This document shows, in pieces, positions 5,717 to 32,093 of a stretch of 32,093 nucleotides of DNA. Positions within the stretch are counted from its first letter, which is position 1. Each line of letters opens with the position of its first letter. A model generated the notes under the pieces. That model saw only the letters and a list, made by a program, of their open reading frames with translations, ran no database searches and was not told where the DNA came from. A program made the position numbers and the translations under genes. Source of the DNA: Pseudomonadota bacterium. Lineage in GTDB: Bacteria; Pseudomonadota; Alphaproteobacteria; MPNO01; UBA2964. The stretch lies in the NCBI GenBank assembly GCA_027624735.1, contig JAQBTY010000006.1:1-32093 (forward strand), in the 5' to 3' direction.

Positions 5717-8700
5717 ATGAGCCACGCAAAATTCGTCCACCTTCACGTCCACTCGGCCTATTCCCTTTCGGAAGGCGCGATCAAGCTGCCTCAGCTGATC
5801 AGCCTCTGCGAAAAAGAGGGCATGCCGGCTGTGGCGGTAACCGACACCGGCAATCTGTTTGGCGCGCTCGAGTTTTCCCTTGCCGCGCGACGGGCTGGCG
5901 TACAGCCGATTATCGGATGCCAGATTGCCGTGGCTCGACCAACCGGTATTGGCGCCGCGCATGGACACCGCGCGCCGGGTCAGCGGGCGGATCTGGATGA
6001 TCTGGTTTTGCTGGTTCGCGATCGGACCGGCTATCAGAATCTGCTGAAACTCGCGAGCCGTTCCTTTCTGGAGACGCCCAGCGGCGAGCGGCCCCATATT
6101 ACCTTCGACGATCTGGAAAAATATTCCGAGGGGCTGATCGCGTTGACCAGCGGACCGAGCGGCGCCGTGGGGGCGTTGCTGGCGGCCGGTCAGCATGACG
6201 CGGCAACGGAAATGTTACAGCGTTTAATGACCCTTTTCCCCGGCGCGCTCTATGTCGAACTGATGCGCCATGGGGAGGCGATCGAGGACAGGATCGATGG
6301 GCCGCTGATCGATCTCGCCTATAAACATGAATTGCCGCTTGTCGCGACGAACAACTGCTATTTCAGCGATCCCGATATGTTTGAAGCCCATGACGCTTTG
6401 CTGTGCATTGCGGCGGGGGCCCATGTCAGTGATCGCGAACGGCGGCGCCTGACGCCGCTTTATGGATTTCGGTCGGCAGAGGAAATGCAGCAGGCCTTTG
6501 CCGACGTTCCCGAAGCCATCGACAATACGCTGATCATCGCTCAGCGCTGCGCCTTCATGCCCGATGAGCATGCGCCGATCCTGCCGGCCTTCTCCACACC
6601 CGACGGGATTACCGAAACCGAGATGCTGCGCGCCGAAGCGGAAGAGGGGCTCGAAGCGCGCATGGCGGTGCTTGGGCTCAATAAAGAGGGGCGGAAACCT
6701 TATGTAGACCGGCTGAATTTCGAGCTCGACGTGATCGTCGAAATGGGGTTCCCCGGATATTTCCTGATCGTTTCCGACTTTATTAAATGGGCGAAGGCGC
6801 AAGGTATTCCGGTAGGTCCCGGTCGTGGATCGGGGGCGGGATCGGTCGTCGCCTGGTCTCTGTCCATTACCGACCTGGATCCGCTTGAATTCGGATTGCT
6901 GTTCGAACGGTTCCTCAATCCAGAACGTGTGTCGATGCCTGATTTCGACATCGATTTTTGCCAGGACCGGCGTGACGAGGTCATTCGCTATGTTCAGGAC
7001 AAATATGGTTCCGATCAAGTAGCGCAGATTATTACCTTCGGAAAATTGCAGGCCCGTGCCGTGTTGCGCGATGTTGGCCGCGTGCTCGCCATGCCCTATG
7101 GTTATGTCGACAAGATCTGCAAGCTGGTTCCTTTCAATCCGGCGCATCCGCCGAGCTTGAAGGAAGCGCTGGAGCAGGAGCCCGAGTTAAGGCGCCTGCA
7201 GAAAGACGATGAACAGGTCGCCCGCCTTCTCGACATCGGGATGCGTCTCGAGGGGCTTTTCCGGCACGCCTCTACCCATGCCGCGGGCGTGGTTATCGGC
7301 GACCGCAGGCTGGACGAGCTGGTGCCGCTTTATCAGGATCCCCGCTCAAGCATGGCGGCGACCCAGTTTTCCATGAAATATGCCGAAGCCGCGGGGCTGG
7401 TGAAATTCGATTTTCTGGGGCTAAAGACCCTGACCGTCCTGGCGAAGGCGGTTGGGTTCCTGGCCGAACGCGGTGTCGATATCGACCTCCTCCAACTACC
7501 GTTGAAAGACGAAAAGACGTTTGAAATGCTGGGCCGCGGCGACACCATCGGGGTGTTCCAGTTGGAAAGTTCGGGCATGCGGGACGTGCTGCGGCAGATG
7601 AAGCCTGACTGTTTCGGAGACATCATCGCGCTGGTCGCGCTCTACCGCCCGGGCCCGATGGACAATATTCCCCGCTATATCGCCTGTAAGCACGGGAAAG
7701 AGGAGCCGGACTACCTGCATCCCGATCTGGAAGGTATCCTGAAAGAAACGTTCGGGGTCATGATCTATCAGGAACAGGTCATGCAGATAGCCCAGGTTCT
7801 TTCCGGGTTTTCTCTTGGCTCCGCCGACCTGCTGCGGCGCGCCATGGGCAAGAAGATCAAGTCGGAAATGGAGGCGCAGCGTAACGCCTTCGTTGAAGGC
7901 GCCGTGGCGCGTGCCGTCGATAAGGGCCAGGCCGGCCAGATTTTCGACCAAGTCGACAAATTCGCGGGCTATGGCTTCAACAAATCGCACGCCGCAGCCT
8001 ATGCGCTGGTTGCGTATCAGACAGCCTGGCTCAAGGCGAATTATCCGGTCGAATTTTTGGCCGCCTCGATGACTCTCGAGCTTGGCAATACCGACAAACT
8101 CAACACATTCCGGCAGGAACTCGGCAACCTTGGCATTCCCCTGCTGCCGCCGGACATCAATGATTCAGACGTTGCGTTTGGCGTTCGGGCGCCTAAGAAC
8201 GAGAACGATAAGGGTGCAATCCGTTATGCGCTGGCCGCCATCAAGAATGTCGGGGCCCAGGCCATGGCGTCAGTCGTCGCGGAGCGGCGCGAGAATGGTC
8301 TCTATGAAGACGTCTTCGATTTTGCGGAACGAATTGGCGCTAAAGCGGCCAATAAGCGTCAGTTGGAAAATTTGGTCCGCGCCGGGGCCCTGGATTCACT
8401 ACACAAGAATCGGCGCCAGCTATTCGAAGGCGTCGAAATATTGTTGAAGACGGCCAGCGCCGCCGAGCGGGACCGGGCGGACCAGCAGGTGAGCCTGTTC
8501 GACGGGCAGGACGACATGCTTCCCAAGCAGCAGGACAGCCTGCCGGACATACAGGATTGGCTGCCGATCGAACGGCTGAAACAGGAGATGGATGCGGTCG
8601 GGCTCTATCTGTCGGCGCACCCTCTGGACGATTACCGGACAGCGTTGGAGCGTCTGGGCGTTGTCCCGCTGGAGTCGTTGACCGTATCGTCTGCCGGCAG

Positions 8701-9181
8701 CAAGCCGCGCGTTGCCGGTGTCGTGGTTCGCCGGCAGGATCGCACCTCCGCGAAGGGCAACCGTTTCGCGTTCCTGCAACTTTCCTGCATAGATGGCGAG
8801 CTTGAGGTCGTTTTGTTTTCGGAGATACTGTCGTCATCCCGCGACTTGCTGGAATCCGGCAAACCGCTTCTGCTTACCTGTGAAGCACGTGGCGATGGCG
8901 ATGGCGTAAGGCTCAGCGCCCTGTCGGTCGAAGATCTGGATGTGGCCGTGGCGCGGTCCGGCGCGGGGTTGAAAGTCCATATCGATCGCGAAGATGCTTT
9001 CCTGGGCCTCAGGAGCATCATCACGCAAGGGAAGCAGGGCAAGGGACAGGTTCGCCTGCTATTGGATATCGATAACCGTCAGTCCGTGGAACTTAGCCTG
9101 CCGGGCGGCTATGCCGTTTCCGCCGATTTGCGGGCCGCGATCAGCGCGGTGCCGGGTGTCATCGAACTGCGTGATATTTGA
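5717..9181 (+). CDS. dnaE: DNA polymerase III subunit alpha
   Basis: N-terminal PHP motif FVHLHVHSAYSLSEGAIK, GPGRGSGAGSVVAW, PDFDIDFCQDRRDEVI, FGKLQARAVLRDVGRVL, C-terminal OB region; ATG at 5717 preferred over 5699. Confidence 0.96.
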   Translation: MSHAKFVHLHVHSAYSLSEGAIKLPQLISLCEKEGMPAVAVTDTGNLFGALEFSLAARRAGVQPIIGCQIAVARPTGIGAAHGHRAPGQRADLDDLVLLVRDRTGYQNLLKLASRSFLETPSGERPHITFDDLEKYSEGLIALTSGPSGAVGALLAAGQHDAATEMLQRLMTLFPGALYVELMRHGEAIEDRIDGPLIDLAYKHELPLVATNNCYFSDPDMFEAHDALLCIAAGAHVSDRERRRLTPLYGFRSAEEMQQAFADVPEAIDNTLIIAQRCAFMPDEHAPILPAFSTPDGITETEMLRAEAEEGLEARMAVLGLNKEGRKPYVDRLNFELDVIVEMGFPGYFLIVSDFIKWAKAQGIPVGPGRGSGAGSVVAWSLSITDLDPLEFGLLFERFLNPERVSMPDFDIDFCQDRRDEVIRYVQDKYGSDQVAQIITFGKLQARAVLRDVGRVLAMPYGYVDKICKLVPFNPAHPPSLKEALEQEPELRRLQKDDEQVARLLDIGMRLEGLFRHASTHAAGVVIGDRRLDELVPLYQDPRSSMAATQFSMKYAEAAGLVKFDFLGLKTLTVLAKAVGFLAERGVDIDLLQLPLKDEKTFEMLGRGDTIGVFQLESSGMRDVLRQMKPDCFGDIIALVALYRPGPMDNIPRYIACKHGKEEPDYLHPDLEGILKETFGVMIYQEQVMQIAQVLSGFSLGSADLLRRAMGKKIKSEMEAQRNAFVEGAVARAVDKGQAGQIFDQVDKFAGYGFNKSHAAAYALVAYQTAWLKANYPVEFLAASMTLELGNTDKLNTFRQELGNLGIPLLPPDINDSDVAFGVRAPKNENDKGAIRYALAAIKNVGAQAMASVVAERRENGLYEDVFDFAERIGAKAANKRQLENLVRAGALDSLHKNRRQLFEGVEILLKTASAAERDRADQQVSLFDGQDDMLPKQQDSLPDIQDWLPIERLKQEMDAVGLYLSAHPLDDYRTALERLGVVPLESLTVSSAGSKPRVAGVVVRRQDRTSAKGNRFAFLQLSCIDGELEVVLFSEILSSSRDLLESGKPLLLTCEARGDGDGVRLSALSVEDLDVAVARSGAGLKVHIDREDAFLGLRSIITQGKQGKGQVRLLLDIDNRQSVELSLPGGYAVSADLRAAISAVPGVIELRDI

Positions 9182-26735: not shown

Positions 26736-27884
26736 ATGCGCGGACAGGGGATGACGCGGATTTTGCCCACACCATCGGCCCATACGGGCCGGCGCGGTAT
26801 TTCGGTACCCGGAATATGGACCGTTCTTTCCGTTCCATTGTACTATCTTGGCGACAGTTTCGCCGGCGAGCGGACGCGATGGGCACTGTGGATTCCCGTC
26901 TGTATGGGGGCGGGAATCGCGTTCTATTTTTCCCTGCACAATGAGCCCGAGATTTGGGTCGGTCCGGCCCTTATCGGCCTTGCCGTATTGGCGGCGGCAG
27001 GCCTGCGGCATCGGCCCGCCTTGTTAATCCTGGTTTATTCTATTGTTTTCCTGTCGTTGGGCTTTGGCGTTGCCCAGTTGCGGACGGCGCTGGTGTCGGC
27101 GCCCGTGCTCCAGAAGAAAATCGGCCCTGTTGCGCTGGAAGGCCGAATTGCCCGTATTGAAGTTCTTACCAAGGGCAGGCGCCTATGGCTCGACAGGCTT
27201 TCTGTTGATCGTCTCGGCCCGGACAAAACACCGGTAAAGGTTCGGATCAAGGTCTTCGCCGGGAAATTGGATTTCCGGCCCGGCGACCGTATCCGCCTTC
27301 GCGCCATCCTTCATCCGCCGTCCGGCCCTGCCATGCCAGACGCATTTGATTTTGCGCGAAGCGCTTATTTCCAGAGGCTGGGCGGTGTCGGTTACGCGAT
27401 TAGCCAACCGATACTCATCAGTCGGGCGACCGGCGGCGGTTTTTCCATCCGGCTTGCGGCGCTGCGCCAGCGGATCACCCAGTCCATTCATGCGGCGTTG
27501 CCCGGCCCGGTGGGAGCGGTTGCCGCGGCATTAATGACCGGCGAGAGGGGCGCCATACCGGAAGAAACCCTGGCCGCTATGCGGGAATCAGGCCTCGCCC
27601 ATCTTCTGGCCATATCAGGATTGCATATGGGCCTGGTCGGCGGATTGCTGTTCTTCAGCGTTCTTCGAACGTCTTGCTTTGCGATACCCCATAAAAAAAT
27701 GGGCGGCCGTCGCGGCTTTTATGGGCAGTCTGGGGTATCTGCTGATTTCAGGCGCCACCCTGCCGACACAGCGGGCATTTCTGATGCTCTCTCTCGTCAT
27801 GCTGGCCGTCGTCATCGACCGGTCCGCGATTTCCATGAACATGGTTGCCTGGGCGGCGGGCGTTATCCTGTTGATCGCCCCTGA
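26736..27884 (+). CDS. comEC: ComEC/Rec2-family DNA-uptake channel protein, N-terminal part (frame-disrupted)
   Basis: N-terminal TM region and competence-domain motif LAAMRESGLAHLLAISGLHMGLVGGLLFF; family resemblance lost after about 27665-27700. Confidence 0.8.
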   Translation: MRGQGMTRILPTPSAHTGRRGISVPGIWTVLSVPLYYLGDSFAGERTRWALWIPVCMGAGIAFYFSLHNEPEIWVGPALIGLAVLAAAGLRHRPALLILVYSIVFLSLGFGVAQLRTALVSAPVLQKKIGPVALEGRIARIEVLTKGRRLWLDRLSVDRLGPDKTPVKVRIKVFAGKLDFRPGDRIRLRAILHPPSGPAMPDAFDFARSAYFQRLGGVGYAISQPILISRATGGGFSIRLAALRQRITQSIHAALPGPVGAVAAALMTGERGAIPEETLAAMRESGLAHLLAISGLHMGLVGGLLFFSVLRTSCFAIPHKKMGGRRGFYGQSGVSADFRRHPADTAGISDALSRHAGRRHRPVRDFHEHGCLGGGRYPVDRP

Positions 27885-28905
27885 AAGCCTGATGAGCGTC
27901 AGTTTTCAAATGTCCTTTGCCGCCGTGACGGCGCTCGTTGCGATCTATGAACTCAGCTACACAAGCCGGCTCAACCATTCGGGCGGGCGTTCGAAAATTC
28001 GGCGCTCGGTGTATTATTTGGCGGCGGTACTGCTCACCACATTGGTTGCGGGCGCCGCGACGGCGCCCTTCGCGCTCTATCATTTTAACCAGGTCGCTGT
28101 TTTGGGCGTGGTCGCTAATCTCTTTGCCGTCCCGCTGACCGCGCTCTGGGTCATGCCCCTGGCGATTACGGCCTTTATCCTGATGCCGTTTGGATTGTCC
28201 GGACTCGCCCTCGGCCCCATGGGGTGGGGAATAGAGGCGGTCATCACGATAGCTGAAACGGTTCAGGCAATGCCTGGCGCGGTTACATTCTTGCCTGCCA
28301 TGCCGGTATGGGGATTTGCGCTCCTGAGCATCGGCGGCCTCTGGCTGTGCCTGTGGCGTCTGCCCTGGCGCGCCATCGGCCTATGTCCCATCGTGATTGG
28401 CGTTGCGGCGATTGCCCTGGTGCGGACACCGGATATTCTGGTGTCCGAAACAGGTACGCTCACCGCTGTGAAGGGAAACGATGGCCGGCTCCTGTTTCAG
28501 TCCCGCGCCCACGGCTTTGTCGCCGAAACCTGGCTGCGCCGGGCGGGGCTGTCGCCATCGGCTACAGGTTCGGTCAAAGGCCCGGCCACAGGGGATGCAC
28601 GAGGGGATGCACGGTGCGACGCGCTTGGATGCATCGTACGAACCCGCGGAGAGGTCATCGCTTTCGTGAAAAATGCTGCCGCGTTGCCGGAAGATTGCGT
28701 GGTTGCAACGATCATTGTCAGCCGCGTTCCCGTCCGCGATAAACACTGCATCGGACCAAAAATCATTATCGACCGGTTCGATCTGTGGCGCGCCGGCGCC
28801 CATGCCCTGTGGCTTACGCCAGCGGGAATTCAGGTGAAATCCGTGGCGGGCACGAACAACGGACGGCCGTGGAACATTTATCCCCGTAAGCGCTTTCAGA
28901 ATTGA
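27679..28905 (+). CDS. comEC: ComEC/Rec2-family protein, C-terminal part in the next frame
   Basis: LRYPIKKWAAVAAFMGSLGYLLISGATLPTQRAFLMLSLVMLAVVIDR...SVSFQMSFAAVTALVAIYE continues the ComEC competence domain in frame +1 relative to the upstream ORF. Confidence 0.8.
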   Translation: MRYPIKKWAAVAAFMGSLGYLLISGATLPTQRAFLMLSLVMLAVVIDRSAISMNMVAWAAGVILLIAPESLMSVSFQMSFAAVTALVAIYELSYTSRLNHSGGRSKIRRSVYYLAAVLLTTLVAGAATAPFALYHFNQVAVLGVVANLFAVPLTALWVMPLAITAFILMPFGLSGLALGPMGWGIEAVITIAETVQAMPGAVTFLPAMPVWGFALLSIGGLWLCLWRLPWRAIGLCPIVIGVAAIALVRTPDILVSETGTLTAVKGNDGRLLFQSRAHGFVAETWLRRAGLSPSATGSVKGPATGDARGDARCDALGCIVRTRGEVIAFVKNAAALPEDCVVATIIVSRVPVRDKHCIGPKIIIDRFDLWRAGAHALWLTPAGIQVKSVAGTNNGRPWNIYPRKRFQN

Positions 28906-29009
28906 CCGATTTTGGCTGCCGCCACCAAGAAAAGCGTAAGGAGGTGAAGTCAGGCGCAGCGTCGTCGCGGCGCCTCGAATAAATGACCGGGTGCGCTGAT
29001 CGAGCCGGG

Positions 29010-30194
29010 TCAAAAGCTTTTTACAACGAACCCTATGATGAGCGCGAACACCGATATGGTGAGCCAATACGACCAACGGCTATCGGCGCCCTCCGATGCG
29101 GTCGATGCTCCGGTGGCTTTCGCATTGGATTCTGGAATCATGGTCCTGCCAGCGGTGGCCCTCGATGCCGCAGGTTGCGATGGGCCCGGTAAGGTTTTTG
29201 TCAGTGTGGATCTGATGTAGTCGATGTTGCTGATGCCCTCCGGCTTCGGCCGAACACGGGCTTGGCGTGTCGCCGGGCCGGCGGTAACCGGGGCGGACTT
29301 GCGATGCCGGGCGAGGAAATCCTCCAGCGACGGGGTCTCCTCGATGGGCCGTTTGCAGATCGTGGCAAAGTCGTCAATCTTGTCCGCCAGAGGTGGAATG
29401 TGTCTCAATTCCTTGAACACCGGGGATGTTTCGGGAGCTTCGAAATCGGACTTTTGGAACAGGATGTTGTCGCCGTTGCAAAACCGTTCGTATAGCGATG
29501 GGTCGCGGGCGATGGCATCGAGGCTGAGATTGATCATGATGAACGAGAAATCATCGATCCTCGGACCGAAATGGTCCGGCGTTCGTCCGGGGTGTTGGAA
29601 ATGGGCGTGGCCAAGCTCGTTGCCGTTGCCGAGCGCCATCCCTGGCACGTACATGCCGTCATAGTCGATCAGGGTCAGGCCACCGCCGTTTCTCACCACC
29701 AGGTTTCCGTTCTCGAGATCGCCGTGGGCGATTTCGCGGGCGGCGAGGAAGTGCGCGAGATCTCGAAACGACGACCAGAGTGTTCGCATGGCCGCGCCGT
29801 CGGAATAATTGTCCTCGATGAACGCACCGAGGGTCTGCCCCTCGGCCCACGCCATCTTGACCACGGGATAGAGGGCCGAGGATACACGCACGCCTTCGCG
29901 CTGATACTCGAACGAGACGAAATGGGCGCTCCCGAGCCCACAGACGGCTTCACTGATCTGCGCATAGCGATGCTCCAGGTCGGGGACGTACCGATGGAAG
30001 CAGCGGACGGCGAATTTCTGTATCTTGGAGGTGACCGTGTAGGTGAGCGCGAAACCGCCGCCAAGAACAATGGGCAGGCCGAGCTTGCTGGTGGCAAGCG
30101 TACCGGCGGCAAGCTCCGCGTCGGTGAATGCCCTGACCGGATGCTGCGCCGCTTGATTATAATCGGCAATGTTCGGGTAACGTGTCACGGCCAT
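29010..30194 (-). CDS. protein-kinase-like protein with C-terminal transmembrane segment (third gene of VWA/PP2C/kinase triad)
   Basis: Gly-rich LGGGFALTYTV, FAVRCF in the beta3 position, catalytic-loop-like HGDLENGNLVV, LIDYDGMY (DFG-like), C-terminal WSYWLTISVFALIIGFVV. Confidence 0.82.
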   Translation of the reverse strand: MAVTRYPNIADYNQAAQHPVRAFTDAELAAGTLATSKLGLPIVLGGGFALTYTVTSKIQKFAVRCFHRYVPDLEHRYAQISEAVCGLGSAHFVSFEYQREGVRVSSALYPVVKMAWAEGQTLGAFIEDNYSDGAAMRTLWSSFRDLAHFLAAREIAHGDLENGNLVVRNGGGLTLIDYDGMYVPGMALGNGNELGHAHFQHPGRTPDHFGPRIDDFSFIMINLSLDAIARDPSLYERFCNGDNILFQKSDFEAPETSPVFKELRHIPPLADKIDDFATICKRPIEETPSLEDFLARHRKSAPVTAGPATRQARVRPKPEGISNIDYIRSTLTKTLPGPSQPAASRATAGRTMIPESNAKATGASTASEGADSRWSYWLTISVFALIIGFVVKSF

Positions 30195-30197
30195 CGA

Positions 30198-30950
30198 TCA
30201 CTCCAGAATCAGCATTGTCGAATCGTCCACCTTCATGCGGCCCGCTTCGCGTTCGTGCGCGACCAGCGCTTCGAGATGGGCGATGTCGGAGATACCGAGC
30301 AGAATGTCTCCTGAGCAGGGATCCGCCTGGGCGAGACGGAGGAACCATTCGGCGATCGCGTCGGTCATGCAGACGATCCTTGGCTGGGCCAGGTGGTCCA
30401 ACTGCCAGATTGTGCTAGAGGCGCTTGCGTGGTCTGGTCGATCGAGAAACGAATTGAGGTCACGCCGCGTCGACAAGAGCGTCGGCCGGCGCCCGAAATC
30501 CTCCGGATCGGTATAGGGAAAGCTCGCCACCAGCCGGGGCCCGTCGAGCAAAAGCCCGACAGTGTCACCAATCGCCAGCAATTGGACCTCGTTCGATTCG
30601 GGCGTGAACGACACCCCAAGCAACGTGGCGAAACTGCCGCGATCGAATGCCGCCTGGCGGCTCCAGGACATGGATTGGGGATCATGGCGACGCGTGAACA
30701 AGGTTATCGCCGCGTTCAATTTCGCCATTGAAAGAACCGGTTCCAGGACGAAGAGCCGGACCAGTATCCTCGCCCACAGCCTGGAATCGAAGGATTCTGT
30801 TGCGCCATCGCTCAGGGCAAGCGCCGATCGCTCCGAAGACCATCTGAAGGCGTCTTCGTTGCGATCGGCGTCACCTGAGTGCTTCGGAACCGATCCAAAA
30901 ACCGGGGCGTAAACTGGAACGGCATGGCCCGGTCCGGCTGTTATCTCAAT
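30198..30950 (-). CDS. PP2C-family serine/threonine phosphatase-like protein (second gene of triad); standard-start ORF covers only 30198..30728
   Basis: Hand translation upstream of ATG 30728 is open and gives ...GDADRNEDAFRWSSERSALALSDGATESFDSRLWARILVRLFVLEPVLS-M..., then GSFATLLGV, IGDTVGLLL, CMTDAIAEWFL, VDDSTMLIL. End 30950 assumes an ATT start. Confidence 0.7.
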   Translation of the reverse strand: MEITAGPGHAVPVYAPVFGSVPKHSGDADRNEDAFRWSSERSALALSDGATESFDSRLWARILVRLFVLEPVLSMAKLNAAITLFTRRHDPQSMSWSRQAAFDRGSFATLLGVSFTPESNEVQLLAIGDTVGLLLDGPRLVASFPYTDPEDFGRRPTLLSTRRDLNSFLDRPDHASASSTIWQLDHLAQPRIVCMTDAIAEWFLRLAQADPCSGDILLGISDIAHLEALVAHEREAGRMKVDDSTMLILE

Positions 30951-31774
30951 TGGCTGGCGCGGGTACCGATCTCGAAGAAGTGACCGATGAAGTCCATGCC
31001 GGCTTTGTAGGCAAAGAAGCGGCTATCTTCGTTCACGTCGTACCCCATGCCCTGGGCAACCGCCACGAGATGTTCGGGAATCCGGCTCGACATGCGAAAC
31101 AGCATCTTCGAGTACTCGTCAGGCAGGTCATCCTCGGATGATGGGAACAGTATCTCATCACCCGATTCCGTATCGACATGGAGGTTGAATAAAAGCGCTT
31201 CACCGTCGTTGGTCGAAACGCCTTTGATTGCTTCCGCCACCTCCTCGGGATCACCATCGGTCGATAGCCCGTCGGTGACATGGACGACGGTCGGCGGATA
31301 AGAGGTCGGATGTTCGTCGCACCATTGCGCGACGATTTCGCCAACCGTGCCCATGGCCTCGCGCATCGGCGTGCCGCCATCATGATTGGGATCGATCCAG
31401 ACCGGGAACTTTACCAATTGTCTTTCGAGAACTTCGTCGCCGGAATCGACATCAATTTCACGCTCGTCGATCCGCAGCGGGTTGTTTTCGATTTCGGAAA
31501 TGGGCAGCACGGTTCGGCCCGACAACGCGCCACCGAAAGCTGAGCCGACCCGTTCCCCGCCGTACCCGATGACGCCGATATCGAAGTAATCGCGGACCCC
31601 GTCCGCCTTGGTACAGCGCACGATGGTTTCGGCTAACGTCTTGTTGAGGACGTCGGCAACGAACTCGGACTTGATGCTGCCGCCGTCCATTTGTTCATCC
31701 ATCGAACCGGACTGATCTATCACGAATAGGAAGCAGGTCGGGTTCTTCCTGTTGATTTCCTTGGTGTAAGACAT
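30941..31774 (-). CDS. VWA-domain (TerY-like) protein (first gene of triad)
   Basis: MSYTKEINRKNPTCFLFVIDQSGSMDEQ (MIDAS DxSxS), VVHVTDGLSTDGDPEEVAEAI; AGGAG upstream of ATG 31774; the ORF-track extension to 32056 is probably untranslated. Confidence 0.85.
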   Translation of the reverse strand: MSYTKEINRKNPTCFLFVIDQSGSMDEQMDGGSIKSEFVADVLNKTLAETIVRCTKADGVRDYFDIGVIGYGGERVGSAFGGALSGRTVLPISEIENNPLRIDEREIDVDSGDEVLERQLVKFPVWIDPNHDGGTPMREAMGTVGEIVAQWCDEHPTSYPPTVVHVTDGLSTDGDPEEVAEAIKGVSTNDGEALLFNLHVDTESGDEILFPSSEDDLPDEYSKMLFRMSSRIPEHLVAVAQGMGYDVNEDSRFFAYKAGMDFIGHFFEIGTRASQLR

Positions 31775-31965
31775 CTTAATCGCTCCTGAAATGTGAACAA
31801 AAATGGTGTGTCCAGCAATCGCGGCCAAGTTAGGCGAATGGTGATGCCGATCGGTTCCCGCTTGCCTCTGCTGCTGACTTTTTTTATCTTTGGCCGCTGG
31901 GCCGGAACGAAAATCCAGGCCCTCTGGTGGCTCTTGAGAGCAAGATATGCAGTAAGTCTTAAAAT

Positions 31966-31996
31966 CGCGATAACGCGTGCCCGCGATAACGCGTGC
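31966..31996. repeat. tandem direct repeat upstream of the VWA gene
   Basis: CGCGATAACGCGTGC twice (31966-31980, 31982-31996), 16-nt period; each copy contains CGCG-ATAA-CGCG. Confidence 0.7.
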
Positions 31997-32093
31997 CGAG
32001 TTAACCGGCATCGCACCATCGCAGGCTAATACCAAGTCTCGCGGAGTGAGACTCACAAAGGGGATTTCTGAATCGGTCTATTTGTGATTCAAG

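What the first reader, a model, noticed from the sequence alone, without database searches (positions are those of the whole stretch)
29010..31774. VWA / PP2C phosphatase / kinase-like triad: candidate signalling or defence module
Seen: three tightly packed genes on the - strand (VWA with DQSGSM; PP2C-like phosphatase; kinase-like protein with HGDLxxxN and DYDG), with VWA and PP2C overlapping and PP2C-to-kinase separated by 3 nt. Established: VWA-PP2C-kinase sets are known as TerY-P phosphorylation triads near tellurite-resistance genes, and a TerY-containing system is among experimentally supported anti-phage candidates. Inference: this is a stand-alone version with no ter genes, nuclease or effector visible in the window, next to a disrupted comEC. 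It is the best candidate here for a poorly described system, though its components belong to known families.
Basis: partly seen in the sequence, partly recalled or inferred. Interest (0 to 1): 0.75.

Follow-up and report, generated by a model that had tools for sequence, protein, structure and literature searches.

The report
TerY-P anti-phage triad, OB-less kinase
Three neighbouring bacterial genes form a copy of a phage-defence system already shown elsewhere to protect bacteria (TerY-P); this copy is unusual only because its kinase lacks the usual nucleic-acid-binding-type domain, and one of its genes has no clear start.

Summary
They are not a poorly described relative of TerY-P but the known stand-alone TerY-P anti-phage triad. 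PADLOC models match VWA/TerY at 8e-117 over the full length, PP2C at 1.7e-82 and the STK_OB kinase at 5e-112. Homologous E. coli operons with the same gene order are already annotated "TerY-P anti-phage system". Catalytic and metal-site residues are present. The triad sits between comEC and lexA, which are neighbours in six related genomes, next to a multi-copy element end where the contig stops. It is therefore an acquired insertion; only this genome in its order carries it.

Two points depart from the norm. The kinase matches only positions 2-306 of the 562-position STK_OB profile: its OB region is gone, but a C-terminal membrane helix, also seen in several OB-bearing relatives, remains. The PP2C frame has no ATG, GTG or TTG ahead of its conserved core, so the claimed VWA/PP2C overlap is not confirmed. 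The neighbouring comEC is also frame-broken, so decay or assembly error cannot be excluded. A new variant of a known kind, of low to moderate interest.

The parts
30941..31774 (-). TerY: VWA-domain protein, 277 aa, complete MIDAS motif (D20-x-S22-x-S24, T135, D168); AGGAG ribosome-binding-type sequence upstream of ATG
   Evidence: PADLOC TerY 8e-117, profile 1-277/277; MIDAS residues invariant in 4 homologues
30198..30950 (-). PP2C-type phosphatase frame; metal-site aspartates present (EDA, SDGA, IGD, TDA, DDST); no standard start codon in frame before the conserved core, so the start is unresolved (ATT at 30950, or a frame slip)
   Evidence: PADLOC PP2C 1.7e-82; alignment with L013 and L015; sequence
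29010..30194 (-). Ser/Thr kinase of the STK_OB family, 394 aa, with catalytic HGD/N and DYDG; beta-3 lysine is Arg (AVRC) as in the aligned relatives; OB region absent
   Evidence: PADLOC STK_OB 5e-112 but only profile 2-306/562; OB regions of four homologues find nothing in the window; residues invariant
29013..29072 (-). C-terminal hydrophobic helix (SYWLTISVFALIIGFVVKSF), predicted tail anchor
   Evidence: best 17-residue hydropathy 2.19 at residues 378-394; the same position is hydrophobic in L013, L014, L015, L016; helix 372-393 in the low-confidence AF2 model
29073..29279 (-). short low-complexity linker where relatives carry the OB domain plus a longer linker
28906..29009 (.). left junction of the insertion: comEC stop to kinase stop, the place where lexA ends in relatives
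   Evidence: synteny
31775..32024 (-). upstream region of the operon (about 250 nt); no sigma-70-like site found by the simple scan
32025..32093 (.). end of a multi-copy element starting at a TA dinucleotide; the contig ends inside it
   Evidence: same sequence at the ends of six other contigs of the genome

Best explanation
This is a horizontally acquired, stand-alone TerY-P anti-phage triad with an OB-less, membrane-tailed kinase. Shown: the three genes, their family membership, intact active-site residues, the missing OB region, and insertion between comEC and lexA beside a multi-copy element. Inferred mechanism: the kinase is held at the inner membrane by its C-terminal helix and kept in check by the PP2C phosphatase, with TerY as a metal-dependent (MIDAS) adapter that bridges them and possibly a target. 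Infection by certain phages, T7-like ones in the tested systems, tips the balance to phosphorylation of host or phage proteins and stops the phage. In this copy, sensing or substrate choice cannot depend on a kinase-fused OB domain.
For: Full-strength PADLOC matches of all three proteins in the canonical order. VWA 57/53/47%, PP2C 40% and kinase domain 50% identical to other triads. E. coli homologous operons with the same order are annotated as TerY-P anti-phage and one is followed directly by a type I RM system. Relatives lie beside SIR2 plus HerA genes (L078) and a CBASS-like patatin plus SMODS nucleotidyltransferase pair (L014). TerY-P protects P. aeruginosa without culture collapse at low and high MOI (PMC10889362) and was active against T7-like phages (PMC7699616). 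Six relatives have comEC next to lexA; here lexA is intact on C17, whose end is also a multi-copy repeat starting TATACCAAGTC. Sparse distribution: at E <= 1e-10 the kinase is in 2 of 385 genomes sampled in the class and 3 of 399 in the phylum sample; TerY is in this genome alone of 27 in its order.
Against: The OB region that names the kinase family is missing. PP2C has no standard start codon. comEC next door is frame-broken, so the stretch may be decaying or mis-assembled. The system's activity here is untested. The closest relatives are only about 50% identical in the kinase domain.
Confidence: 0.72

Rival explanations
1. A decaying TerY-P remnant: the OB region was lost by deletion and the PP2C start by a frame slip, and the operon no longer defends.
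For: No ATG/GTG/TTG start for PP2C; OB region absent; adjacent comEC split in two frames; element end directly upstream.
Against: VWA and kinase frames are full and end cleanly; catalytic residues are kept in all three; the kinase keeps an in-frame linker and membrane tail after the lost region; ribosome-binding-type sequences precede VWA and kinase; GC3 equals that of the neighbours.
Confidence: 0.2
2. A membrane stress-signalling switch (kinase/phosphatase/VWA) unrelated to phage, as proposed for TerY triads in metal or tellurite stress.
For: VWA, PP2C and kinase triads are linked to tellurite resistance and proposed as metal-sensing switches (Anantharaman et al. 2012, cited in PMC11090510); the membrane tail and absent OB region fit a membrane rather than a nucleic-acid signal.
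Against: Best matches are the defence form, in defence neighbourhoods; no ter genes beside the triad; patchy, acquired distribution.
Confidence: 0.08

Closest known systems
Stand-alone TerY-P anti-phage system (VWA + PP2C + STK-OB; Gao et al. 2020; PADLOC TerY/PP2C/STK_OB; E. coli CFSAN051542 BCD20_RS00345-00355)
   Same: Same three families, same gene order and orientation, same active-site residues, no associated nuclease needed
   Different: Kinase of 394 aa lacks the OB region (561 aa in E. coli) but has a C-terminal membrane helix; PP2C start unresolved
TerY-P module of CoCoNuT type II/III-A systems (kinase with C-terminal zinc ribbon)
   Same: VWA + PP2C + kinase logic
   Different: No zinc ribbon visible on this kinase, no McrBC/CoCoNuT genes seen in the window
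Divergent VWA-PP2C-kinase triads with membrane kinases and no recognised OB (Acaryochloris plasmid pREC4, L075; G1277, L076 and L077)
   Same: Kinase followed by membrane helix instead of OB
   Different: Much more distant (29-40% in the kinase domain), with extra C-terminal regions such as coiled coil

Membership tests
TerY-P anti-phage system | TerY-type VWA protein | tested here: met
   PADLOC TerY 8e-117, full profile
TerY-P anti-phage system | PP2C-like phosphatase next to it | tested here: met
   PADLOC PP2C 1.7e-82, profile 7-238/242
TerY-P anti-phage system | PP2C encoded as a complete gene with a standard start | tested here: inconclusive
   no ATG/GTG/TTG in frame before the core
TerY-P anti-phage system | Ser/Thr kinase of the STK_OB family in the third position | tested here: met
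   kinase part 5e-112, profile 2-306/562
TerY-P anti-phage system | OB-fold fused to the C-terminus of the kinase | tested here: not met
   profile 307-562 unmatched; OB regions of L013-L016 find nothing in the window
TerY-P anti-phage system | active catalytic and metal-site residues in all three proteins | tested here: met
   invariant columns
TerY-P anti-phage system | protection against phage | not testable with these tools
   needs a phage challenge
TerY-P with zinc-ribbon kinase (CoCoNuT-associated) | zinc ribbon after the kinase | tested here: not met
   no cysteine in residues 306-394 (translation)
Tellurite-resistance ter cluster | ter genes next to the triad | tested here: inconclusive
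   none among the ten window genes searched by family or in the shared gene order; the contig ends 319 bp upstream of TerY and the rest of the genome was not searched for ter genes

The most novel reading that the evidence does not exclude
A working TerY-P defence whose kinase needs no OB domain: a tail-anchored membrane kinase with TerY and PP2C suffices, so the OB domain would be an optional input or targeting module and the membrane would be where the switch acts.
Probability: 0.25. Interest if true: 0.42.

Novelty: new variant of a known kind. Interest (0 to 1): 0.27.

Why it matters
The OB fold has been read as a sign that the TerY-P kinase interacts with an oligonucleotide (PMC11090510). 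A natural OB-less copy with the membrane tail kept is a ready-made test of which part is essential. Its partial match (about 306 of 562 profile positions) may also let coverage-based annotation miss such copies (inference, not tested).

Tried and rejected
Chance ORFs: rejected by the E-values. OB domain hidden in another frame or downstream: rejected by tblastn of four OB regions and three-frame translation. Contig as contamination: comEC is closest to a genome of the same family (56%), and gltX and gltA match the order's genomes well in the same gene order. More OB-less close relatives: none among the hits; the OB-less ones found (L075, L076, L077) are distant. A scan of viral contigs with TerY and of phage records found nothing. 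The tree leaves the window's place among close OB-bearing relatives unresolved, so a single OB loss is likely but not shown. AF2 of the kinase with 5 sequences gave a poor model (pLDDT 50); the PDB fold search matched eukaryotic kinases only weakly. No solved structure is close to TerY or PP2C by sequence. The linker motif of relatives is not recognisable in the window kinase. NCBIfam and PHROGs gave nothing useful.

Full report
Observation. The window is a whole contig (G000:C245, 32,093 bp) of an unnamed draft genome of 4.42 Mb in 515 contigs, 93.8% complete and 5.9% contaminated. Three - strand genes lie at 31774-30941 (VWA), a frame ending at 30198 (PP2C) and 30194-29010 (kinase). The kinase starts 3 nt after PP2C stops. 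The PP2C frame is open from 31022 but contains no ATG, GTG or TTG before the Met at 30728, which lies behind the first metal-binding motifs. An ATG at 30925 is in another frame. Relatives have an ordinary ATG that overlaps the VWA stop (L013, L015) or follows it by 7 nt (E. coli).

Identity. PADLOC: TerY 8e-117 over 277/277; PP2C 1.7e-82; STK_OB 5e-112, but only 2-306 of 562. Pfam sees only weak VWA, PP2C_2 and kinase-like traces below its cut-offs. The TerY MIDAS residues, the PP2C metal-site aspartates and the kinase HGD, N and DYDG are invariant across the aligned homologues. The kinase has Arg where the beta-3 Lys is expected (AVRC), as does every homologue, so this is a family trait and not a defect of this copy.

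Known or not. A stand-alone triad with an OB-fold kinase is described as an experimentally shown anti-phage system (Gao et al. 2020, described in PMC11090510 and PMC7699616). TerY-P protects P. aeruginosa PAO1 without culture collapse at high MOI (PMC10889362). Homologous E. coli operons carry these names in RefSeq; four of 5,426 complete E. coli genomes have one close to the L017 sequence. In strain CFSAN051542 the operon is followed directly by a type I RM system. Other relatives sit beside SIR2 plus HerA genes (L078) and beside a patatin plus SMODS pair of CBASS type (L014). The kinase of L014 has no triad partners upstream of it and may be solitary or cut by its contig end.

What differs. 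Seven relatives (L013/L003, L014, L015, L016, L017, E. coli L074, Calothrix L012) carry a further region after the kinase that aligns with one another or with the OB part of the profile. That this region is an OB fold rests on the profile's name and the literature; it was not tested by structure here. The window kinase's match stops at about residue 305; it continues with a 70-residue linker and ends in a hydrophobic helix at 378-394. L013, L014, L015 and L016 end in the same kind of helix, E. coli and L017 in a much less hydrophobic tail. No OB sequence is found in the window. Distant triads with membrane kinases lacking a recognised OB exist (L075, L076, L077), but the window kinase is closer to the OB-bearing ones: 50% to L013 against 29-40% to these. 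The tree does not resolve the branch order.

Setting. In six genomes of the same order, comEC is followed convergently by lexA, then moeA, moaC and trp genes as read from their translations. In this genome the triad takes lexA's place next to comEC, and lexA is intact near the end of contig C17 after moeA. The window ends in a 69-nt sequence found at six other contig ends; C17 ends in another sequence matched at six other places, mostly contig ends. Both start with TA-flanked TACCAAGTC, which suggests the two ends of one insertion sequence that targets TA (IS630/mariner type, inference). The triad with an element copy was thus most simply inserted between comEC and lexA; that C245 and C17 were joined there is inferred from synteny, and whether more cargo lies in the gap is unknown. 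Only this genome of 27 in the order has TerY; at E <= 1e-10 the kinase occurs in 2 of 385 sampled genomes of the class, 3 of 399 of the phylum and 2 of 369 of a second class.

Mechanism. Shown: components, order, active-site residues, membrane-type tail, acquisition. From literature: protection, mainly against T7-like or Autographiviridae phages, without population collapse. Inferred: a kinase/phosphatase switch bridged by TerY, held at the membrane, tipped by infection. The phosphorylated targets are, as far as I know, not identified for this family.

Verdict. A member of TerY-P by its three components, with the OB feature tested and not met. It is a new variant, of modest interest, with a real chance (0.2) of being a decaying copy.

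Noticed in passing
window 26736-28905: comEC is split into two overlapping frames; five of six relatives of the order have it as one long ORF of about 700 aa or more (L041 is also split in the listing).
   Followed up: partly
window 32025-32093 and ends of contigs C263, C462, C108, C18, C5, C376: Multi-copy 69-nt element end beginning at TA (TACCAAGTCTCGCGGAGTGAGACTC...), at which assembly breaks; C17 and six other places carry a second end type, TACCAAGTCCCGC..., probably the two ends of one TA-targeting insertion sequence.
   Followed up: partly
L013, L014, L015, L016, L074 kinases, linker after the OB region: A short motif N-x-x-[IA]-[LA]-x-x-[ILM] occurs once or twice in the otherwise low-complexity linker of each of five TerY-P kinases (9 instances; shuffles of the linkers give 0.05 on average; the pattern was derived from part of the same set). 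Possibly a docking motif; absent from the window's kinase.
   Followed up: partly
kinase family, residue 64 of the window kinase: The beta-3 lysine of protein kinases is replaced by Arg (AVRC) throughout the aligned family, while HGD/N and DYDG are kept.
   Followed up: no
L076 (G1277) 6638-8921: A TerY-P-like kinase with membrane helices, long coiled coil and a helix-hairpin-helix-like stretch in place of OB; the same genome has a second divergent triad (L077) in which the PP2C protein also has a membrane helix and an extra C-terminal region.
   Followed up: no
L016 (IMG/VR contig): A full OB-bearing TerY-P kinase at the edge of a contig that goes on with phage-like genes, so triads may travel on prophages.
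   Followed up: no
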